NCBI GenBank assembly: GCA_017629985.1 | Contig: JAGBWD010000011.1 | Coordinates: forward strand, 1 to 54,431 | Direction of reading: 5' to 3' | Origin: Alistipes sp. | Lineage (GTDB): Bacteria; Bacteroidota; Bacteroidia; Bacteroidales; Rikenellaceae | Length of the DNA stretch: 54,431 nt | In this document: positions 1-33,953 of the stretch, in pieces | Numbering within the stretch: the first letter of the stretch is position 1 | How the letters are laid out: the number at the start of each line of letters is the position of its first letter | Notes under the pieces: generated by a model | What the model was told of the DNA's origin: nothing | Database searches by the model: none | Seen by the model: the letters and a program-made list of their open reading frames with translations, nothing else | Position numbers and translations under genes: made by a program

Positions 1-42
1 ATTCCTGTTGCGCGTATGAGAAAGCAGATATAGTATAAATAG

Positions 43-162
43 GAGAGTGAATAAAAAGATGTAGTTTTAGGCTTGCGAAGCCCGAAAAAGCGGAGTTTAC
101 TGAGCGTAAATGAGCATTTTGAGGGCAAGCGTAACGACAAAATACACTTTTTATTCACTCTC
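43..162 (-). repeat. 120 bp palindromic dispersed repeat, copy 1
   Basis: This 120 bp unit is identical, base for base, to 18778-18897 and 33824-33943 (here reverse-complemented). Its ends are a perfect 16 bp inverted repeat (GAGAGTGAATAAAAAG), and the match continues inward with gaps to about 26 bp. Inside are two small hairpins, TTTAC/GTAAA and GGCTT/AAGCC. It lies 7 bases past the stop codon of the Sel1 gene and reads in that gene's direction, so it should form part of its 3' UTR. No protein is encoded. It could be a MITE-like element or a selected RNA structure. Confidence 0.9.
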
Positions 163-169
163 CAGATGT

Positions 170-1505: not shown

Positions 1506-1577
1506 GGTCTGATGGGCGAGTGGCTTAACCAACGGTCTGCAAAACCGTCTACAGCGGTTCGAATCCGCTTCAGACCT
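1506..1577 (+). tRNA. tRNA-Cys (anticodon GCA)
   Basis: The gene folds with a 7 bp acceptor stem (GGTCTGA/TCAGACC), an anticodon stem around CTGCAAA giving anticodon GCA, and a T arm with GGTTCGAATCC. CCA is not encoded. Its 3' end is the attachment site of the element that follows, and the last 16 bases recur at 8951-8966. The tRNA stays complete because the element restores the 3' end. Its original terminator was displaced to 8971-9002. Confidence 0.92.
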
Positions 1578-1579
1578 CA
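1564..1579 (+). other. attL core of integrative element
   Basis: The 16 bases TCCGCTTCAGACCTCA cover the 3' end of tRNA-Cys and recur exactly at 8951-8966. They bracket a 7,387 bp segment with a tyrosine integrase at the far end, the expected arrangement for integration into a tRNA 3' end. Confidence 0.88.
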
Positions 1580-1585
1580 AAATCA

Positions 1586-1630
1586 AATGGATAACAAGTT
1601 GATATACAGCGAGTTATCCATTTTTCTTTT
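1586..1630 (+). terminator. element-supplied terminator for tRNA-Cys
   Basis: A 10 bp perfect stem (AATGGATAAC at 1586-1595, GTTATCCATT at 1613-1622) with a 17-base loop is followed by TTTTTCTTTT. It lies only 9 bases after the tRNA, inside the element, and would replace the chromosomal terminator that the insertion moved to 8971-9002. Confidence 0.7.
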
Positions 1631-1647
1631 GTGTTATAGTATAGTAA

Positions 1648-1668
1648 TTGCACCCTACTTGCACCCCA
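1648..1668 (+). repeat. candidate integrase arm-type sites, left end
   Basis: Two TTGCACCC(T/C) units start 11 bases apart. The same pair, in the same orientation, is at 8815-8835 near the other end (19 of 21 positions equal). Paired direct repeats near both att cores are what arm-type binding sites of tyrosine integrases look like. The function is inferred. Confidence 0.6.
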
Positions 1669-1674
1669 CGAACA

Positions 1675-1704
1675 TAAAAACCGCCTACCCGATGGGCAAG
1701 CGGT
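1675..1704 (-). terminator. terminator ending the element's leftward operon
   Basis: On the - strand a 25-base hairpin (11 pairs with two G-T, loop ATC; positions 1704-1680) is followed by five T. It stops transcription coming from the 1961-3682 genes before it runs into tRNA-Cys. Confidence 0.7.
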
Positions 1705-1960
1705 CAGTTATGAGTATTAAGGTAGAGCAAAGATAAGTATTTTTTTGCAATCGTGCAACTCTTGGCTCTAAATCTCGCAGAACTCCGATGCCGGCAAGGG
1801 GTGCGAGGGGTAATCGGCTCGGATAGTGTAAAAGGGGTAGGTGCGACCAAAAAAAATTTTTTGTTGTGTCTTGCATCCCCTACCTTGTTTATACAAAATA
1901 GGAGTGACCTGCACGATGCAAGCCACTCCAACGGATAACAAAAACAATATGTGCGATATA
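1705..1960. other. non-coding stretch of the element
   Basis: No convincing gene is present. There are two nested short inverted repeats around 1871-1921 (CTTGCATC/GATGCAAG and GGAGTG/CACTCC), an A/T tract at 1850-1864, and on the - strand a TATCTTTG box at 1728-1735 with GTTG 20 bases upstream. The box would drive only a very short transcript into the terminator at 1675-1704. The stretch is a candidate place for a cis-acting packaging or regulatory site, but nothing proves that. Confidence 0.35.
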
Positions 1961-2596
1961 TTAAACACCTATTTTCTCTATACGCTCCTTACGCTCCGCA
2001 TCGGTCATAACATAGAGAGATAGGAAATGGTCAATCTGCTTTGCCTCATCCTCTATGCGATACAAGCAATCCTCGCCCGCAAAGTTTGTAGTCATAAAAT
2101 AGTTTCTCTGGTGTAACTGCTCGGCAACTGATAGGAGTTGCTCATATAGGCGATAAGCCTCCACTTCGTTAGGCGTAAGTGTGTATCGTCTTCGCTCCAA
2201 CATAGCATCCGCAACACTTTGAGCCACTCGCCACTCTCCGTTAGGTGTAACCTCTACCTCCGTAGCGAGGTCGAGTTTAAGACCGAACATTGCGGATGTT
2301 ACTTTGGCGATATAAGCATTGTCGCAACTCTCACGAGCCTTTGCAAGGTTATCGGCTCGTAGGTAGTGAGGGCAATTTGTGGCATCCATCCACTTCTCAC
2401 ACTCTGCCATTACCTCCTTGCGTTTCCAGTCTGCACCTCGCTGTTGGTAAGTGATAGCATCCTCGATACTCTCTTCATGCTCCGCAAGGGTTTTGCGTAT
2501 CTGCTCCAACTTTGCACAATGCTTTGCAATCTCATCCCTAACTATCTCTCGACTAATATCCGAGATATACGATAGTGTATCATTCTTTTTTGTCAT
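1961..2596 (-). CDS. hypothetical protein of the integrative element
   Basis: I do not recognise this 211-residue protein. It is mostly charged helix, with heptad-like stretches near residues 15-50 (EIVRDEIAKHCAKLEQIRKT), and no signal peptide or membrane segment. It is the last gene of the leftward operon, 18 bases after the stop of the small coiled-coil gene, and is followed by a non-coding stretch and a terminator. The position next to the TerS-like gene would suit a packaging or capsid-size helper in a satellite, but that is speculation. Confidence 0.6.
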   Translation of the reverse strand: MTKKNDTLSYISDISREIVRDEIAKHCAKLEQIRKTLAEHEESIEDAITYQQRGADWKRKEVMAECEKWMDATNCPHYLRADNLAKARESCDNAYIAKVTSAMFGLKLDLATEVEVTPNGEWRVAQSVADAMLERRRYTLTPNEVEAYRLYEQLLSVAEQLHQRNYFMTTNFAGEDCLYRIEDEAKQIDHFLSLYVMTDAERKERIEKIGV

Positions 2597-2614
2597 AGTT
2601 TCAACTTTTTAGTT

Positions 2615-2845
2615 TTATGCTTTAATTCTGCCCGACTTGATTAGCATTTCTTTCATCTCGGCAAGTTGTTTCTTAAACTCTGCCTCCTCAACCTCTACGG
2701 GTGTAGGTTGTGGCTCGGTTGGCTCATACTTCAAATCATTATACTCTGCTTTCAACTCCTCTAATTCTGCATAAAGCGGTGCTAATGCCTCTTTGCATTT
2801 CTCGGCAACAAAAGCCTTAAATGCCTCTTGTTCTGCTTGTGTCAT
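2615..2845 (-). CDS. small acidic coiled-coil protein
   Basis: The 76-residue protein has two helical stretches (residues about 3-35, ending AELEELKAEYND, and 50-75, EFKKQLAEMKEMLI) separated by a proline-rich hinge (EPTEPQPTPVEVEE). It is not recognised as a named family. The gene lies 40 bases after the TerS-like gene and 18 bases before the 211-residue gene, so it shares their operon. Small coiled-coil proteins in phages and satellites often act as adaptors or scaffolds, which is only a contextual guess. Confidence 0.6.
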   Translation of the reverse strand: MTQAEQEAFKAFVAEKCKEALAPLYAELEELKAEYNDLKYEPTEPQPTPVEVEEAEFKKQLAEMKEMLIKSGRIKA

Positions 2846-2885
2846 ATTCTTGATTTTTTATTCGTTATACATTGATTTCTTTGCT

Positions 2886-3161
2886 CTAATTCTTGATAAG
2901 ATGGTCGGGAAAGGCTACCGAGCCGTTGTCGTACATTCGCTTAAAGTTGCGTAACACGGCTTGTATTTCCCAACTGCCAACCTTTCGGCTTGCGAGAGCT
3001 GCGGCACTATTGATGTTTGCTTTGGTCGGATATGCTATAATATACGCTTGCGAGGCACTATATCCGCAACATATTAAACACGCAAACACCTTATCCTCTT
3101 GGGTTATTCTCTCGCAAAACCCTATACGAGCGTAATACTCTTTTTTCTTGTCTTTATTCAT
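2886..3161 (-). CDS. terminase small subunit-like DNA-binding protein
   Basis: In this 91-residue protein residues about 18-68 read as the helix-turn-helix of phage terminase small subunits: a hydrophobic helix (KVFACLICCGYS), then SASQAYIIAYP, SAAALASRKV and a final helix (EIQAVLRNF). That is the order seen in families where an A-T-QA-..AGY motif precedes SA...G.RLL and KI...I. TerS recognises phage DNA for packaging. No large terminase, portal or capsid gene is in the element. The start overlaps the preceding stop by 8 bases, showing tight coupling. The call rests on pattern alone; a generic helix-turn-helix regulator is the alternative. Confidence 0.5.
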   Translation of the reverse strand: MNKDKKKEYYARIGFCERITQEDKVFACLICCGYSASQAYIIAYPTKANINSAAALASRKVGSWEIQAVLRNFKRMYDNGSVAFPDHLIKN

Positions 3162-3348
3162 CGCTTAAATGTTTAGTCCTCCAAAATTTAAGTTCTTTTA
3201 CAAATCGCTTTCGAGCCTCCTCCTTATCCTTAGAGGGGTCGATATAGATAGTTGTGCGGTCATCCACTTGAACAGGTACAAAGTGGCGGTGGCGTTCTCT
3301 TATCTCCACCAACTTGGCATCCGATAATCCGCAATAATCGTTAGGCAT
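3154..3348 (-). CDS. small hypothetical protein of the element
   Basis: The protein is 64 residues from the ATG at 3348 (MPNDYCGLSD). This start makes an 8-base overlap with the preceding stop, the same overlap that the gene makes with its downstream neighbour, so it is preferred over the in-frame ATG at 3417. It contains a short beta-like segment (VQVDDRTTIYIDPSKD) and a basic C-terminal helix (RKRFVKELKFWR). No family is recognised. It is translationally coupled between the 113-residue gene and the TerS-like gene. Confidence 0.55.
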   Translation of the reverse strand: MPNDYCGLSDAKLVEIRERHRHFVPVQVDDRTTIYIDPSKDKEEARKRFVKELKFWRTKHLSDE

Positions 3349-3682
3349 TTTGCAAAGGATTAGCGTATGTGTGAACAACATCCCCGAACTCGTCTTTGCT
3401 TTCGTAGTCGGGGGCATCGACTACCACGATAGCACAAGCCTTGTTGCCGTAGAGATAAGCGAAATATACACACTTACACGCTCGGCACTCCTCTATGCCA
3501 TTGCTCGAAAGTGAAAAGCAAGGCTCATCCGCTTGCTCTGCCTTACGCTCGTAGAGCATTACGGAAAATTGCTCGTTCTCGGTAGTGGTAACATCTGCCA
3601 CACTACCCTCGATACTAACCTTTGCGACTTCGTAGCCGAGTGCATCGGTTAAGGTCTGTTTTATCAAGTCTATTTTTCTCAT
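3341..3682 (-). CDS. hypothetical protein of the element
   Basis: The 113-residue protein has a compact alpha/beta pattern: an N-terminal helix (IDLIKQTLTDALGY), strands VAKVSIEG, ADVTTTENEQFSVMLYE and CVYFAYLYGNKACAIVVVD, and several cysteines (CFSLS, ECRACKC). No known family is recognised. It starts 12 bases after the stop of the primase-like gene, so it belongs to the same transcript. Confidence 0.6.
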   Translation of the reverse strand: MRKIDLIKQTLTDALGYEVAKVSIEGSVADVTTTENEQFSVMLYERKAEQADEPCFSLSSNGIEECRACKCVYFAYLYGNKACAIVVVDAPDYESKDEFGDVVHTYANPLQNA

Positions 3683-3694
3683 TTTTACTTTTTT

Positions 3695-4561
3695 TTAATG
3701 TTTTACAATCAAATCGTTTAATCTCGGAACACCTGCCCGACTGCAAGCCGAGGCAAATACTCCTATTCCGTAGCCACTACCCGATATTGTGTGGTATGTC
3801 TTTCGTGCATCGTTCTCCCGATATTTGGGGTGGTAACGGGAAAGAGCCACAAAAACATCTTCGCCCCCTGCTCCCATAATCGACTTGACGCACGACCCGA
3901 TAGCGAGCCAGTTGCTACGCCCTTGCGTGATGTCTATGGAGTTCCGAGTAATGTAGTCCACCCCTGCCAACAAAAGCCTCTCATCGGTTGCCGTTGCAAG
4001 TCTTGGCGTATAGGTTGGTGCTACCTCTCTCGGCAACTCGTTCCACATCTCACTATCGGGGTTGAAGATTGGGGTATCGTCAAACGATGCAACACGCAAT
4101 CGGCATACATCTTTGCCACTCTCATCTACTCGATAACCTATGCCTCCGAAATACTCACTCAACGCCTTGAAATACTCCCGATGCTTGGTTGGGTCGGCAA
4201 TCTTTACAAGGGCGAACACGCCACGACCACTACACGATAGACCTGCATAGTACACAAAGGGTAATCCTCCGAGTAGGTCTTTTAGTACATCCACATCCTC
4301 GACCTTGTCCCACTCGATGCACAACACTCCGCTATGCTTAATAAGTCCCTCGCTATTCCGCACCTCAAACACGCCCGATGGAGTGTAGCAGGGCATTTGT
4401 CGCTTGGCAAGTTGGAACGCCTCCGAGCCGTAGGGCAACCCCCTTAACGCCTCGACTCTCGCCCTTACTCGCTCCGAGAAGAGGATAGTTTCAAGGGGCA
4501 AAGATCCGATGGGGGTACGGCTGTTATATATGTCTGAAAAATACGATACATTCATAGTCAT
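3695..4561 (-). CDS. primase-like protein (BT4734/VirE N-terminal domain, PriCT-type C-terminus)
   Basis: The 288-residue protein matches proteins of Bacteroidetes mobile elements that begin with a BT4734-like (VirE N-terminal) domain. The core is about residues 80-180: LCIEWDKVEDVD, then FVYYAGLSCSGRGVFALVKI, a pattern of archaeo-eukaryotic-type primase folds. The C-terminal third (GRSNWLAIGSCVKSIMG..., RYHPKYRENDARKTYHTIS) fits a PriCT domain. With the helicase gene upstream it would form a replication module. The start is the ATG at 4561, with 4555 as alternative; the longer frame to 4603 begins on a weak upstream codon inside the repeat-rich gap. Confidence 0.7.
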   Translation of the reverse strand: MTMNVSYFSDIYNSRTPIGSLPLETILFSERVRARVEALRGLPYGSEAFQLAKRQMPCYTPSGVFEVRNSEGLIKHSGVLCIEWDKVEDVDVLKDLLGGLPFVYYAGLSCSGRGVFALVKIADPTKHREYFKALSEYFGGIGYRVDESGKDVCRLRVASFDDTPIFNPDSEMWNELPREVAPTYTPRLATATDERLLLAGVDYITRNSIDITQGRSNWLAIGSCVKSIMGAGGEDVFVALSRYHPKYRENDARKTYHTISGSGYGIGVFASACSRAGVPRLNDLIVKH

Positions 4562-4603
4562 ATTGTTGTTGTTAATCAACGCCTTGCAACAGCCTCGCAA
4601 CAT

Positions 4604-4770
4604 TATAAGTGTTTGATTATCAATAAATCAACACATTCAACAATGCTTTGTGTGTTTAATTCTATATATTTTCAAGAACTTTTTAATTTTATGTGTTGAT
4701 AGTGTTGAGTGCTTAAATATCAATAACTTACAATGTTGCTACTACTGTTGATTAAGTGTTGAGGGTGTTG
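4604..4770. other. candidate replication origin with GTGTTGA iterons
   Basis: This AT-rich gap between the helicase and primase genes holds eight copies of (G/C)TGTTG(A/C) or its complement: 4628-4634 and 4637-4642 inverted, 4693-4699, 4702-4708, 4734-4739, 4745-4751, 4756-4762 and 4765-4771 direct. Neighbouring direct copies start 9 or 11 bases apart. Iterons next to replication genes are typical of origins. That this one is an origin is inference. Confidence 0.5.
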
Positions 4771-6045
4771 CTAAAATGGTGTATCCTCTTGCTCTTGGAT
4801 TATATCTTCAGTGGTCTTTCCTGCTACTAAATACCGCCTACCTTTTTTAGTTGCTCCGTTCCAATCTTTGTACTCTGTATTGAGATAGTCCATTTTCAAC
4901 TCTTTGCGTAAAGCATCGGATATTGCTCGCAAATTAGTTTCCCTTATCTCGACAGATAAATCCTTTGCCGAAAACCCAAACTCCAAACCTCCAATAGATG
5001 CGGAAGTTTCCGCAATCCACTCCTTAATGGTCTTTGCAAGGTCGGAGAGAGAATTTTCCACGACCACCGCAAGAGCATCGGTCTTAATTGCATCGTGAGA
5101 AAACCACATACGGCTTTGGTCGGGTGTTGCCATTTGCCGTGTTGCCAGTGTGTAAAGTACCGCAGGGGTTTCGGCTTGTAATCGAGCATCGAACTTGGGG
5201 ATATATTCCTCTGCCGTTAGCGGGTTTAATCGCCTAATCCAATAGCGCACGTCGAACTCGGTCGCCTTTATCAGCGTTTCGGCATTATTCGAGAGAATAA
5301 CCAACTTAACAAAAGGCTCAAAATCCACTTGTGGCTTGTATTTTTCGTTGATAGTTGCCTTTTTTGCGGTACTCATTGCCTTAATTTTGTTAAGGGTCTT
5401 TTTAGCATCGCTAATCTCCTCGAAAACCGCCACCAAAGACTTAATCCAGCCGTTAAATGTTGAGTTTAAGTCATCTTGGGTGTAAAACCCTACATTCGCT
5501 CCAAATAAGTAGGATAACGCATTGCCAAAACTGCTCTTTCCCGTGTGGTTTTCAGGCGAAACAAGACAAAGAACTGGTAGCACTTGGGTAGGGTTACGAT
5601 AAAGCAAAGTAAGGTAATCCCAACCGAGAGCCTCTTGCTCTCCAAATATGCGTTTCATCAACATATCCCACATTGGATGCTCGCCTTTGCTTGGCTCAAT
5701 TTCTAATCGGTTGTATATATTCCAACAGTTGCCTACAATCTGCTTATAGTCGGTATGGCTTGGCACTACTGCAAGAGCATCATAATATGGTGCTTGGGTT
5801 AGTGTACTATTGCCGTAACGCTCTTTTATAACCTCTCTTGTTCGACCTACAAGGGTAGTGTGGGGTCTGCCGAGTGTATCGGGGATAGTTATCAACTCCA
5901 AAACATCGTTTCCAACACGAATTATTTGCGGATGGTCTTGTTTATTTCCTTGATATTCACTATCTTTGCACAAATCAAACACTTGCCTCGCTTCTGCCCC
6001 TTGTCCGCTTTCGAGCGTATGAGGGGCTTGCTTTATCTCCTCCAT
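4771..6045 (-). CDS. P-loop primase-helicase family protein (satellite/phage-type)
   Basis: The protein is 424 residues from ATG 6045. Walker A is ENHTGKSS (lysine about residue 170), followed by a helix and LVAVFEEISDAK as a likely Walker B region, then VKLVILSNNAE, a sensor-like strand, and an arginine-rich stretch (FDVRYWIRRLNP). This is the layout of the superfamily-3 helicases found next to primases in phages, plasmids and P4-like satellites. It should unwind DNA at the element's own origin. The start at 6045 lies one base after the DUF3853 stop; the frame further upstream overlaps that gene. The next gene is the primase-like protein. Confidence 0.75.
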   Translation of the reverse strand: MEEIKQAPHTLESGQGAEARQVFDLCKDSEYQGNKQDHPQIIRVGNDVLELITIPDTLGRPHTTLVGRTREVIKERYGNSTLTQAPYYDALAVVPSHTDYKQIVGNCWNIYNRLEIEPSKGEHPMWDMLMKRIFGEQEALGWDYLTLLYRNPTQVLPVLCLVSPENHTGKSSFGNALSYLFGANVGFYTQDDLNSTFNGWIKSLVAVFEEISDAKKTLNKIKAMSTAKKATINEKYKPQVDFEPFVKLVILSNNAETLIKATEFDVRYWIRRLNPLTAEEYIPKFDARLQAETPAVLYTLATRQMATPDQSRMWFSHDAIKTDALAVVVENSLSDLAKTIKEWIAETSASIGGLEFGFSAKDLSVEIRETNLRAISDALRKELKMDYLNTEYKDWNGATKKGRRYLVAGKTTEDIIQEQEDTPF

Positions 6046-6046
6046 A

Positions 6047-6355
6047 CTATCTGCGATTACGATTAGCAAAGAGTTCCATTGCCATCCGAGCATCTACCAC
6101 GATTTTACGCCCATATTGTTTTACGGCAGGTGCAAGTACCGTGTCTTTTAACTTCTGTGCGGTTGCGTGTGATACTCCGAACATTTCCCGAATTCCAGCC
6201 AACCCATATATATATGTAGGTGTGGCTTCGGTCTTGGGTTGCTCTTGGAGCAAGTCTTTAATTTGTTGAGGCATTGCCGATGCGATTACCTCCTTGAATT
6301 GTCCAACCGTTAGCATTGCCAAAGGTGTAGCTTCTGTAAAATTGTTATATACCAT
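6047..6355 (-). CDS. DUF3853 family DNA-binding protein
   Basis: The protein is 102 residues from the ATG at 6355 (a TTG at 6364 is in frame). The C-terminal half (IYGLAGIREMFGVSHATAQKLKDTVLAPAVKQYGRKIVVDARMAME, shown with its key motif GVSHATAQKLK) reads as the excisionase-like helix-turn-helix of DUF3853, common in Bacteroidetes integrative elements. It could act as excisionase or as regulator of the replication genes that follow 1 base downstream. Upstream lie several ATCGTAA repeats, possible operators. The family assignment is from memory of the pattern. Confidence 0.7.
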   Translation of the reverse strand: MVYNNFTEATPLAMLTVGQFKEVIASAMPQQIKDLLQEQPKTEATPTYIYGLAGIREMFGVSHATAQKLKDTVLAPAVKQYGRKIVVDARMAMELFANRNRR

Positions 6356-6364
6356 CGTTTTCAA

Positions 6365-6543
6365 ATTTAATCATTAAACAATCGGGGAGCGACCCCTTTA
6401 TCTCGAATTCGATAGTACAATATTACAATCGGAAAATGCGATAAAATTTACATCGTAAAACATTATAATAAAAGCCGTGCTACGGCATATTGTAGGCACG
6501 GCTCAAAGTGAAAATCGTAATATAAATCGTAAAATCGTAAAGT
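6365..6543. promoter_or_regulatory. regulatory gap with ATCGTAA repeats and a terminator
   Basis: A hairpin AGCCGTGC...GCACGGCT (about 6472-6503) followed on the - strand by TTTTATTA ends the integrase operon. Next to it are direct repeats of ATCGTAA (three within 6510-6540, another near 6452). The repeats could be operator or excisionase sites for DUF3853. The leftward promoter of DUF3853 must lie here; a TAAATTTG box at 6362-6369 is too close to the start to be convincing. Confidence 0.45.
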
Positions 6544-7269
6544 CTATTGTGGTTTGATATTGATGTTTTTAAGTCTGCGATTATTGCATCTAATTCTATC
6601 TATTGCCTCTTCAAGCCTTTTGCATTGAAAATGCTGTTCTAAATCCACTCCAAATCGTACTTTGCAAAATTCCCTGATTTTTGTTCCATCTATACTGCCA
6701 TTACTTTCTTTATGTTGAATATCTTGCCTAAAATAATTACATAATAGCAATAATGCACATAATTCTTGCAGTTCAACAAATTTCCCTACCCATAAGCCAT
6801 TTTCAATATATCCATTTTGTATTAGTTGGCTTTCAATCTTTTTGTACTCACTTTCTAACCCACATCTTATATATTTGCTCAAATCATCTTCCTTTGTTAA
6901 TTCTGATAATCTATGATATACAAGATATTGTGGTATAAATTCAATATACCAACCTTTTATAAATCCGAATACTTCATCTTCTTTGCAATCATCGAGTAGC
7001 AATTTAGCGACCTCATCCATCATTGTGAAATTCATAGGCTCTTTACCATCTTCTCCGAAAATATAGCCGAATTTATTGTTTGCCCATTCGAAAAAGAACT
7101 TTGTATCTTTAAGCTCTTGAGTAATATCAAACATTACTTTTTTATAGTATTCTTTTTCTCCCAGTGGGTAGGCACTTGCCATTATTTTGTGAGTTGCAAT
7201 AGATTGCTCTATTGATAGCGACATCACTATTTCCGTTGTAACTACTTCGTATATTTCTCTTGCCGTCAT
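6544..7269 (-). CDS. hypothetical AT-rich cargo protein of the element
   Basis: I do not recognise this 241-residue protein. It is largely alpha-helical and charged, without signal peptide. Its C-terminal part (NGYIENGLWVGKFVELQELCALLLLCNYF...) resembles segments seen in several Bacteroidetes element-encoded proteins, where a W-G-..EL-..L pattern precedes a winged-helix-like end. By eye it is more AT-rich than its neighbours, pointing to later acquisition. It is preceded by a strong AGGAGG site 9 bases before the ATG, rare in this phylum, and is the last gene of the integrase transcript. Cargo (defence or regulation) is possible but unproven. Confidence 0.6.
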   Translation of the reverse strand: MTAREIYEVVTTEIVMSLSIEQSIATHKIMASAYPLGEKEYYKKVMFDITQELKDTKFFFEWANNKFGYIFGEDGKEPMNFTMMDEVAKLLLDDCKEDEVFGFIKGWYIEFIPQYLVYHRLSELTKEDDLSKYIRCGLESEYKKIESQLIQNGYIENGLWVGKFVELQELCALLLLCNYFRQDIQHKESNGSIDGTKIREFCKVRFGVDLEQHFQCKRLEEAIDRIRCNNRRLKNINIKPQ

Positions 7270-7287
7270 ACTCTTTGCCCTCCTATT

Positions 7288-7353
7288 TTAATAATGCTTT
7301 TGACCTAAAACTTCAGCCAAAAAGCAAAAGAAACATAATACACTAAACAACAT
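7288..7353 (-). CDS. 21-residue hydrophobic small ORF
   Basis: A tiny frame encodes MLFSVLCFFCF...QKHY, 21 residues with a hydrophobic core. It has a canonical AGGAGG 8 bases ahead of the ATG. It lies 13 bases after the integrase stop and 18 bases before the next gene, whose own leader repeats the same TAGGAGGnCAAA pattern. The strong ribosome site makes translation likely. It may be a leader peptide coupling the next gene, or a small membrane peptide or toxin. Confidence 0.4.
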   Translation of the reverse strand: MLFSVLCFFCFLAEVLGQKHY

Positions 7354-7365
7354 ACTTTTGTCCTC

Positions 7366-8754
7366 CTAATTTTTGAAATAATCGTATTTGGTTATCTTGG
7401 TTGCAACATCCAACTCGTCAGCCTTAATGTACTTGCGTAGATTTTTAATGTTGGTGTGTCCTGTAATCTTGCATATATCGTATAGATCCATTCCCGATAA
7501 ATACATCAAAGTTGCGCCAGTTCTGCGAGCCGTGTGCGTCTTTACAAGGTCGCACTTGCGAATGTTGGTCGTTTCTCTCTTGCCACCCTTTGTTGAGGTT
7601 ATCGGCACTTCCTCGGTTATCCCTGCCATTTCCGCTACTACCTTGATATATTGGTTTAGTTTCTGCTCCCAAATATATGGTAGGTGATTGTTGTACTTGG
7701 CAAGCAAGCCGAGCATCATTTTATTTGCAGGGATGCGAACACGCACATTCTCCTTTTGTTGGTCGATAACGATATATGTTACATCTTCTTTGATTATCTC
7801 GTCATTCTCTCCGATGCTCTTGTGTACCTCCGTTACTACATTATAGGGTGTCAATCGGTTGTAGTCGGACACTCTTTGCGCCAGGCAACAACCAGCCAAA
7901 AATACATCCCTTGCTATCTCATAACCTTTTGCCATCTTCGACAAATCAACCTCTGCAATAGCATCTAACTCCTCTTTTGTAAGGTAGATATTATCGGCTT
8001 CCTCTGCGGTAACTCTAAACTTTTTCGCCTTGTAAGCCTCGTTAGTGGTCAGCTCGTCATCTTTGGCTGCGGTCATTATCACTTTAATATCCTTGATGCA
8101 CTTACCGAGCGAGTTAAGTGTGTAACCCTTGCGAGTAAGCCACGCAGTATATTGTCGGTAGAACTCCAAATCTATATCCTCAAAGTTGAGTGATATGCCG
8201 TTTGCTTGTTGAAATTCTGCAAACTGGGTCATCGAGGCTTTAATCGCCTTAACCGTTCCGTGCTTATAAATCGTTCCCTTGTTGGTTAGGCGTGTGCCGT
8301 TGCTTATCTCCTCGATATATCGAGTAATATAGGCGTTGAGGCTCTCTTTCTTGGCTTCTGCTTCTTGTTTCTCTCGTTCTGCATCCTCTTTGCGCTTAAT
8401 ATCTGCCCAGTAGTCATCGACAACACCCTGCAACCAATCGGAGGTAAAAACCACATCCGAGCCGAGGGCATTGTATCGAGCATTAACCCACGCCTCAATC
8501 TCTCCGAGTGTGGTGTTATAACTCTTATACAAGCCACCCTCTACATCATCTTTGAGATACATCTTGCGGATGGTGTTCTTCTCCATATCCCATATCTTCT
8601 TTGGGATAACAACACCGCTCAATGCGTATGCACTTACTTTCTTGGGCTTACCCTTTTCATCCTTGCCTATATAGGCGTTTAGTCGCATTTTAACCTTGAT
8701 ACTTGCATCTGCATCGGTCTTGGTGGTGCGAACAATGTACATTAAAGAAGCCAT
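7366..8754 (-). CDS. tyrosine recombinase/integrase
   Basis: The 462-residue site-specific recombinase should integrate and excise the element at tRNA-Cys. An N-terminal Arm DNA-binding-like region (AYALSGVVIPKKIWD) and a SAM-like core-binding region (about residues 100-230) precede the catalytic domain. The catalytic set is visible: R294 (CLAQRVSDY), H407 and R410 (THTARRTG), H433 (TGHTNIK) and Y442 (RKYIKAD). The ATG at 8754 is chosen because the upstream in-frame start is a TTG lying inside the promoter. The gene is at the attR end and reads inward. Confidence 0.93.
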   Translation of the reverse strand: MASLMYIVRTTKTDADASIKVKMRLNAYIGKDEKGKPKKVSAYALSGVVIPKKIWDMEKNTIRKMYLKDDVEGGLYKSYNTTLGEIEAWVNARYNALGSDVVFTSDWLQGVVDDYWADIKRKEDAEREKQEAEAKKESLNAYITRYIEEISNGTRLTNKGTIYKHGTVKAIKASMTQFAEFQQANGISLNFEDIDLEFYRQYTAWLTRKGYTLNSLGKCIKDIKVIMTAAKDDELTTNEAYKAKKFRVTAEEADNIYLTKEELDAIAEVDLSKMAKGYEIARDVFLAGCCLAQRVSDYNRLTPYNVVTEVHKSIGENDEIIKEDVTYIVIDQQKENVRVRIPANKMMLGLLAKYNNHLPYIWEQKLNQYIKVVAEMAGITEEVPITSTKGGKRETTNIRKCDLVKTHTARRTGATLMYLSGMDLYDICKITGHTNIKNLRKYIKADELDVATKITKYDYFKN

Positions 8755-8778
8755 AACAAACAGATTTTTAATTATGTA

Positions 8779-8810
8779 CAAAGATACGCATTTATTGCGA
8801 CTATATCAAA
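8779..8810 (-). promoter_or_regulatory. integrase promoter
   Basis: On the - strand TTTG (8810-8807) and TATCTTTG (8786-8779) are separated by 20 bases, a full match to the Bacteroidetes consensus. Transcription would start near 8772, giving a leader of under 20 bases to the integrase ATG. The candidate arm sites at 8815-8835 lie just upstream, so bound integrase could influence its own promoter. Confidence 0.75.
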
Positions 8811-8814
8811 TTAT

Positions 8815-8835
8815 TTGCACCCTATTTGCACCCTA
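8815..8835 (+). repeat. candidate integrase arm-type sites, right end
   Basis: Two TTGCACCCTA units start 11 bases apart, matching the pair at 1648-1668 in 19 of 21 positions and in the same orientation. See the left-end entry for interpretation. Confidence 0.6.
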
Positions 8836-8950
8836 AAAAGTATATTTTAGTGAATTATTTTAGATTGATACGCCAAACAAAGATTTGTAACTAATTGATA
8901 TACATTCGTAATATAGTTTAGTGTGATTTAGTACGATTTATTGTTTGAGT

Positions 8951-8966
8951 TCCGCTTCAGACCTCA
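8951..8966 (+). other. attR core of integrative element
   Basis: This is an exact copy of the last 16 bases spanning the end of tRNA-Cys (1564-1579). The sequence before it does not resemble a tRNA, so this is the far boundary of the element. The 85 bases before it are AT-rich non-coding element DNA. Confidence 0.88.
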
Positions 8967-18762: not shown

Positions 18763-18777
18763 TATAGATTAAACATA

Positions 18778-18897
18778 GAGAGTGAATAAAAAGTGTATTT
18801 TGTCGTTACGCTTGCCCTCAAAATGCTCATTTACGCTCAGTAAACTCCGCTTTTTCGGGCTTCGCAAGCCTAAAACTACATCTTTTTATTCACTCTC
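18778..18897 (+). repeat. 120 bp palindromic dispersed repeat, copy 2
   Basis: This copy is identical to those at 43-162 (inverted) and 33824-33943. It starts 15 bases after the yidD stop, reads in the same direction as yidD, and is followed within 10 bases by a long hairpin. It is thus placed between the stop codon and the transcript end. The base after the unit begins TTAAGCTATG, similar to TTAGGTTATG after copy 3. Confidence 0.92.
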
Positions 18898-18905
18898 TTA
18901 AGCTA

Positions 18906-33799: not shown

Positions 33800-33823
33800 A
33801 CTCTCTGCTTCGATAAGTATAAA

Positions 33824-33943
33824 GAGAGTGAATAAAAAGTGTATTTTGTCGTTACGCTTGCCCTCAAAATGCTCATTTACGCTCAGTAAACTCCGCTTTT
33901 TCGGGCTTCGCAAGCCTAAAACTACATCTTTTTATTCACTCTC
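33824..33943 (+). repeat. 120 bp palindromic dispersed repeat, copy 3
   Basis: Identical to the copies at 43-162 (inverted) and 18778-18897. It starts 24 bases after the nagB stop, reads with nagB, and is followed 10 bases later by the nagB terminator at 33954-33981. Confidence 0.92.
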
Positions 33944-33953
33944 TTAGGTTATG

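What the first reader, a model, noticed from the sequence alone, without database searches (positions are those of the whole stretch)
1564..8966. Compact 7.4 kb tRNA-Cys element with replication module and TerS-like gene: candidate phage satellite of Bacteroidales
Seen: exact 16 bp att repeats, a complete tyrosine integrase, a DUF3853-type regulator, SF3-like helicase (Walker A ENHTGKSS) and primase-like gene, then a tightly overlapping gene string containing a TerS-like helix-turn-helix protein. There is no relaxase, no large terminase and no capsid or tail gene. Known: P4-like and PICI satellites combine integrase, own primase-helicase and often a TerS homologue to steer packaging of a helper phage. 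Inference: this may be an analogous, smaller satellite in Bacteroidetes. If so, the small genes 1961-3682 are candidate packaging or interference factors.
Basis: partly seen in the sequence, partly recalled or inferred. Interest (0 to 1): 0.82.

Follow-up and report, generated by a model that had tools for sequence, protein, structure and literature searches.

The report
Probable phage satellite of gut Alistipes
A 7.4 kb integrated DNA element in a gut bacterium (Alistipes) carries the means to integrate and copy itself plus a shortened version of the protein phages use to choose which DNA goes into their capsids, so it is probably a parasite that rides in phage particles, a lifestyle little known in this major group of gut bacteria.

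Summary
In detail: a 7,387-bp element at tRNA-Cys with 16-bp att repeats and ten same-strand genes; no relaxase, large terminase or structural family was found in it. Gene C (2886-3161) is a real relative of phage small terminase (TerS), but only of its DNA-binding N-terminal part: profile score 42.1 against at most 17.2 in 400 column-shuffled controls. Six distinct close elements occur in the host genus, at tRNA-Cys, -Leu and -Phe. Integrase, H gene, helicase and replication repeats vary among them; genes E-C-B-A, a noncoding block (1796-1864) and a terminator-like hairpin are in all six. In four of five more distant loci a short C homologue follows the helicase or primase near an integrase gene. 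In 10 of 32 other Bacteroidales genomes with a related helicase, a relaxase lies in that position; none was found in a C element. Best reading: a phage-satellite family in which a TerS DNA-binding domain redirects a helper's packaging, working like Rpp of E. coli PICIs. Not shown: helper, excision, packaging. A new variant of a known kind.

The parts
1506..1578 (+). tRNA-Cys (gca), integration target; 3' end forms attL
   Evidence: ARAGORN; Rfam tRNA E 3.2e-10
1564..1579 (+). attL core, 16 bp, TCCGCTTCAGACCTCA
8951..8966 (+). attR core, exact copy of attL
1648..1666 (+). two TTGCACCC copies 11 bp apart: candidate integrase arm-type sites, left end
   Evidence: the only occurrences in the window are here and at the right end; function inferred
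8815..8833 (+). two TTGCACCC copies 11 bp apart: candidate arm-type sites, right end
   Evidence: family D6
1796..1864 (.). conserved noncoding block (21-bp core at 1816-1836); candidate packaging recognition site
   Evidence: core in all six distinct close elements at 208-285 bp from the tRNA, and in no fetched locus outside these elements; once in the window, 0 expected
1901..1929 (-). hairpin, probable terminator of the E-A operon; also present in all six close elements
   Evidence: folding z -5.2; shared
1961..2596 (-). gene A, 211 aa, unknown, present in all six close elements
   Evidence: alignment A3; no convincing family hit
2615..2845 (-). gene B, 76 aa, probably helical (inferred), present in all six close elements
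2886..3161 (-). gene C, 91 aa, TerS DNA-binding-domain-only protein
   Evidence: hhalign to 12 TerS proteins E 1.2e-6, 400 shuffles far below; homologue in L062 matches phrog_51 at E 2.9e-6; A6 profile finds terS in 2 of 8 phages
3154..3348 (-). gene D, 64 aa from the conserved start (longer ORF 3154-3417); absent from L040 and L053
   Evidence: alignment A4
3341..3682 (-). gene E, 113 aa, unknown, present in all six close elements
   Evidence: alignment A7; 7 of 180 genus genomes, same loci
3695..4603 (-). gene F, primase-like (BT4734-like_N + PriCT_2)
   Evidence: phrog_15962 DNA primase 1.8e-16
4604..4770 (.). candidate replication origin, AT-rich with 4 GTGTTGA and 6 TGTTGA copies (both strands)
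   Evidence: 14 of 200 shuffles reach 4 copies of a 7-mer; other elements have other repeats in the same place
4771..6093 (-). gene G, DUF5906 SF3-like helicase
6047..6364 (-). gene H, DUF3853 HTH protein, likely regulator or excisionase
6544..7269 (-). gene I, 241 aa, unknown; weak relatives in the same place in L039 and L062
   Evidence: no Pfam hit
7366..8781 (-). gene J, tyrosine integrase

Best explanation
The element is a member of a family of phage satellites. The integrase excises and inserts it at tRNA-Cys. Primase F and helicase G copy it from the repeat-bearing origin beside G. Protein C, a TerS cut down to its DNA-binding domain, recognises the block at 1796-1864 and recruits an infecting or induced helper phage's terminase, most simply by forming a mixed complex with the helper's TerS as Rpp does in E. 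coli PICIs; A, B and E are partners in redirection or interference. Shown: anatomy, TerS homology of C, conserved module and block, no relaxase or structural family found. Inferred: excision, replication, C-block binding, helper use and packaging.
For: C is homologous to the TerS N-terminal domain. Across six close elements at three kinds of tRNA gene, integrase, H, helicase and repeats are exchanged while E, C, B, A, the block and the hairpin stay. The block keeps 57-66 of 66-70 aligned bases in five elements although gene A beside it has 33-63% protein identity. C is the only protein of the constant set with a predicted DNA-binding domain. Helicase relatives carry a relaxase 0.8-2.0 kb downstream on the same strand in 10 of 32 other genomes; C elements carry C there instead. 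Eight of 10 C-element genomes show neither PF03432 nor PF01076. Seven att-bounded elements of 6.4-9.7 kb. dN/dS 0.04-0.41 where computable.
Against: No helper identified. Element proteins and block were not found in IMG/VR, and C and the block were not found in INPHARED phages or PLSDB plasmids. C lacks the part of TerS after the DNA-binding domain. The C profile missed terS in 6 of 8 phages. The window protein alone matches TerS only at E=0.011, its six-member close group only at E=0.003. A co-resident TerS/TerL prophage shares no 14-mer with its element over the 19 kb compared. The helicase family is also found in relaxase-bearing elements. The hairpin is as constant as the block, so the block is not the sole candidate cis site.
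Confidence: 0.6

Rival explanations
1. A mobilizable element that carries only an origin of transfer: the conserved block is oriT, and a relaxase supplied by another element moves it by conjugation. C is an accessory DNA-binding protein.
For: Helicase and layout shared with relaxase-bearing elements. A conserved noncoding site near one end fits oriT as well as a packaging site. oriT-only elements are described in PMC11389934 (passages).
Against: Neither PF03432 nor PF01076 was found in 8 of 10 C-element genomes, though these are mostly incomplete assemblies and a relaxase could arrive with a plasmid. C resembles TerS and not the NikA/MobC proteins found in relaxase elements. The block has no match in PLSDB plasmids.
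Confidence: 0.17
2. C is a transcription or replication regulator built on a TerS-type HTH, and the element is an integrating replicon without its own transfer system.
For: C keeps only the DNA-binding domain. It sits in the replication-side gene string. No viral collection match.
Against: C and the block persist while integrase, helicase and origin repeats are exchanged, so C is not tied to one origin. It occupies the slot where relatives keep the relaxase.
Confidence: 0.15
3. A decayed prophage that kept its lysogeny and replication genes and a terS fragment.
For: Complete prophages are said to be scarce in some Alistipes species, most being fragments (PMC10841027, passages). A short TerS could be a relic.
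Against: Same compact order and intact frames in independent elements with dN/dS below 0.5 where computable. att-bounded sizes of 6.4-9.7 kb; no structural family in the cargo proteins scanned. C homologues of 89-106 aa also in other genera.
Confidence: 0.05

Closest known systems
Rpp proteins of E. coli PICIs (PMC6739421, passages read)
   Same: A small satellite protein with a TerS-like DNA-binding domain; there it pairs with helper TerS and switches packaging to the island.
   Different: Rpp has 144-153 aa, a winged HTH like that of lambda TerS, and a C-terminal dimerisation domain. C has 91 aa, resembles the phrog_51 type of TerS, and ends soon after the DNA-binding domain. No TerS binding is shown for C, and homology to Rpp was not tested.
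Phage-inducible chromosomal islands, PICI (PMC6092414, passages read)
   Same: Integrase, regulator, replication module, att sites, no structural or lytic genes; some carry a terS homologue.
   Different: 7.4 kb here against typically 12-15 kb; host is in Bacteroidales; helper induction and interference untested.
PICMI of Vibrionaceae (PMC10803314, passages read)
   Same: Very small (about one eighth of its helper's genome), integrase plus regulator plus primase, no capsid-remodelling genes.
   Different: PICMI integrates beside fis and has no terS, sid or ppi; this element uses tRNA genes and has a TerS-domain protein.
Relaxase-bearing elements of Bacteroidales with a DUF5906 helicase (loci L076-L078)
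   Same: DUF5906 helicase (Pfam in L076 and L077, match to the window helicase in L078) followed by a primase; tyrosine integrase in L076 and L078 (none seen in the 12 kb of L077).
   Different: Their primase is the CHC2/Toprim type, not the BT4734/PriCT type of the window (C element L042 does have the CHC2/Toprim type). A relaxase follows the primase, with MobC/NikA in L077 and L078. The C profile found no match in these three genomes (one search listed only G224, G463 and G551 besides the window).

Membership tests
PICI | integrase + replication module + master regulator in conserved order | tested here: met
   that H is a master regulator is inferred
PICI | no structural or lytic genes | tested here: met
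   for the window element; cargo of L039, L055 and L061 (one L055 protein matches a spanin family at E 0.051, taken as chance); other elements' unshared genes were not scanned
PICI | size typically 12-15 kb | tested here: not met
   6.4-9.7 kb in seven att-bounded elements
PICI | att sites never used by prophages | not tested
   prophage sites in the genus were not surveyed
PICI | induction by, packaging by and interference with a helper phage | not testable with these tools
   needs culture
PICMI | integration beside fis; no terS | tested here: not met
   tRNA-Cys site and TerS-domain gene
P4-like satellites | P4 marker genes sid, psu and delta (recalled) | tested here: not met
   no such family among Pfam, PHROG or NCBIfam hits of ten proteins; P4-family primase_Cterm matched only weakly (18.2 bits, cut-off 108.7)
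Relaxase-bearing IME | relaxase in the element | tested here: not met
oriT-only IME | oriT recognised by a relaxase in trans | tested here: inconclusive
   a conserved noncoding block exists; its function is unknown
Phage small terminase (TerS) | N-terminal DNA-binding domain | tested here: met
Phage small terminase (TerS) | oligomerisation and TerL-contact region after the DNA-binding domain | tested here: not met
   C has 91 aa and homology ends near residue 76; the TerS compared have 144-198 aa, one more of 131 aa being cut by its record end

The most novel reading that the evidence does not exclude
Bacteroidales integrative elements switch their mode of transfer by swapping one cassette: a shared integrase-helicase-primase layout carries either a relaxase (conjugation) or a cut-down TerS plus a conserved cis site (capture of phage packaging), making this a separate satellite family in Bacteroidota whose specificity factor is only a TerS DNA-binding domain.
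Probability: 0.4. Interest if true: 0.85.

Novelty: new variant of a known kind. Interest (0 to 1): 0.63.

Why it matters
The review passages I read (PMC11389934) list P4-like, PICI, cfPICI, PLE, PICMI, VEIMEs, Tycheposons and a soil family; its only Bacteroides mentions concern NBU1/NBU2, which move by conjugation. My ten literature searches (open-licence papers only, listings plus passages of a few) showed no report of a phage satellite in Bacteroidota. If the reading holds, a dominant group of gut bacteria has its own satellites, recognisable by a 90-aa TerS-domain gene after the primase or helicase, and there is a concrete protein-site pair (C and the block at 1796-1864) to test. It would also suggest that conjugative and phage-borne transfer are interchangeable modules on one layout; that the NBU mobilisation regions may be a cassette is the title of a 1995 paper seen only in that review's reference list.

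Tried and rejected
Pfam and NCBIfam gave no useful match for C, and solved structures only a transposase at E 0.96. Rows dropped before counting: G097/L043 (match inside a 568-aa unrelated frame), G188/L054 and G154/L056 (stops in the matched frame; no element genes beside them), G605/L052 (100% identical to G143/L039 over 17.7 kb including flanks, counted once). Terminase_6N (PF03237) in 8 of 10 C-element genomes looked like a helper sign until the control: 166 of 180 genus genomes have it, so it carries no weight. 14-mers shared between partial element L053 and 19-kb stretches of two prophages: 1 in L101, none in the co-resident L100. Rfam: only the tRNA. Defence families: nothing convincing. 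IMG/VR, phage and plasmid searches for element proteins or the block: no relatives, except distant helicase matches in 3 phage records; the IMG/VR scans use short peptide or DNA patterns and find close relatives only. Homologues of A, B, D or E in five distant C loci and seven prophage or phage stretches: none. An RteC-like reading of gene I (recalled resemblance) found no Pfam support.
Full report
Anatomy. The window is one contig of a genome (G000, 1.76 Mb in 38 contigs, 84% complete). The genus is inferred: a same-genus genome (G183) carries a related element on a contig with the length and match of JAFQTX010000037.1, an Alistipes MAG from goat colon. At tRNA-Cys (1506-1578) an exact 16-bp repeat of the tRNA 3' end brackets 7,387 bp. 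All ten genes lie on the minus strand: integrase J, unknown I, DUF3853 protein H, DUF5906 helicase G, primase F, then E, D, C, B, A, with 8-bp overlaps at E/D and D/C. Pairs of TTGCACCC 11 bp apart near both ends, and nowhere else in the window, look like integrase arm sites. G+C is 42% inside and 47% in the rest of the window.

Relatives. C was found in 10 of 180 genus genomes at E<=0.01. I dropped two as chance (no element genes beside them), leaving eight genomes and seven distinct loci, because G143 and G605 are identical over 17.7 kb. Six of the seven are close (window, L039, L040, L041, L044, L053) and one (L055) is distant. E was found in 7 of 180 genomes, all the same loci. A family-wide sample (7 of 200 matched, one dropped) added L042, and an order-wide sample (4 of 393 matched including the window's) added L060-L062. 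Of the five distant loci, four (L042, L055, L061, L062) have C directly after a helicase or primase gene and an integrase gene nearby; L060 starts 775 bp before its C gene, so nothing upstream is held, and in L042 the integrase is cut by the contig end and its frame is interrupted. Seven elements have both ends recognisable, with repeats of tRNA 3' ends of 13-49 bp and sizes of 6.4 to 9.7 kb: window 7,387, L039 9,694, L009/L044 7,728, L040 6,813, L041 6,357, L055 8,056, L061 9,691 (the 7,728 is the difference of two positions).

What is constant. Window and L039 share integrase and H types; L044 and L040 share another pair; L041 has a third; the integrase side of L053 is cut by the contig end. 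Helicases match the window's in L044, L039 and L053; L040 and L041 have a longer type with D5_N as well as DUF5906, and lack F. D is missing in L040 and L053. The repeats beside the helicase differ too: GTGTTGA or ATCAACA in window and L044, AGTTAGG in L041, TAGGGAT in L040, GGTTGTA in L055; 14, 10, 2, 12 and 8 of 200 shuffles reach the top count, so each is weak alone, and L039 has no excess (101 of 200). Genes E, C, B and A, a noncoding block (window 1796-1864) and a hairpin (1901-1929) are found in all six close elements. The 21-bp core of the block lies 208 to 285 bp from the tRNA and was matched in no fetched locus outside these elements. In L039 three cargo genes lie between block and hairpin, so the two are separate units. 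The block keeps 63 of 68, 58 of 70, 57 of 66, 66 of 68 and 65 of 67 aligned bases in L039, L040, L041, L044 and L053, while gene A has 33-63% protein identity.

C is a TerS DNA-binding domain. The window protein alone matches phrog_51 (TerS) at E=0.011. The 11-member family against 12 TerS proteins (4 phrog_51 matches from genus genomes, two of them seen beside a TerL; 8 from phage records) gives probability 91%, E=1.2e-6, 58 aligned columns over the first ~64 residues of TerS; the close group alone gives only E=0.003. The score of 42.1 compares with maxima of 14.9 and 17.2 in 200 shuffles of either side, and it falls to 32.3 at worst when any one member is left out; other HTH and mobilisation families score 8.1-13.2 against the full C profile, and the highest unrelated pair was distant C against gene A, score 16.9, E 0.055. 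Homologue L062 matches phrog_51 at 2.9e-6; of the other seven homologues in that scan only L040 matches a TerS family, at E=0.036. The C profile searched over 8 whole phage genomes hits 2, each once, inside terS or the TerS-like frame, and misses 6. The rest of TerS is missing.

Transfer module. The window helicase has relatives in 32 other Bacteroidales genomes of 393. In 10 of these 32 a relaxase domain lies 0.8-2.0 kb downstream on the same strand (distances worked out by hand from the tables). Three loci read in full show helicase, CHC2/Toprim primase and relaxase in a row, two of them with an integrase and two with MobC/NikA. The window's primase is of another type, but C element L042 has the CHC2/Toprim type, so primases are exchanged too. 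In C elements the position after helicase and primase holds C, and neither relaxase family was found in the element; 8 of 10 C-element genomes show neither PF03432 nor PF01076 at all, while G101 has them 55 kb or more away and G463 on another contig.

Mechanism. C is the only protein of the constant set with a predicted DNA-binding domain, and the block is the better of two constant noncoding candidates (the other folds as a terminator), so C probably binds the block. In E. coli PICIs, Rpp mimics the DNA-binding part of TerS, pairs with helper TerS and redirects packaging (PMC6739421, passages). I propose the same kind of action here, not homology with Rpp. At 7.4 kb the element would need concatemeric packaging, as in PICMI (PMC10803314, passages), or small capsids.

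Limits. No helper, excision or packaging evidence; searches of viral, phage and plasmid collections found no copy of the element; most of these genomes are draft; no structure model could be made. The oriT reading of the block cannot be excluded.

Noticed in passing
G000:C28 around 5813-8365 (locus L098); L089-L095: A stand-alone large-terminase-like gene (467-507 aa in seven loci; Terminase_6N and Terminase_6C in L098) lies beside a ~100-aa gene and, in six of the seven loci, an HTH repressor-like gene (S24 type recalled, not scanned). In the two wider contexts read by eye (L098, L099) I saw no terS or capsid gene. PF03237 occurs in 166 of 180 genus genomes, though not each hit was shown to be this gene. 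Possibly a domesticated terminase.
   Followed up: partly
window 42-163, 18777-18898, 33823-33944: Three 122-bp copies of a repeat with 17-bp terminal inverted repeats: the last two identical, the first in reverse orientation at 98%; also in L039 and L040 at 93-99%. A MITE-like element.
   Followed up: partly
L039 5565-7147: Three cargo genes between the conserved block and gene A, including an RHS-repeat-like 268-aa protein and a 135-aa protein with a weak match to a PADLOC SLATT model (E 1.4e-4); function unknown.
   Followed up: partly
L100 (G596:C17): A prophage with TerS and TerL, followed by genes that look phage-like by eye, in the same genome as the partial C element L053; no shared 14-mer with that element in the 19 kb compared.
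   Followed up: partly
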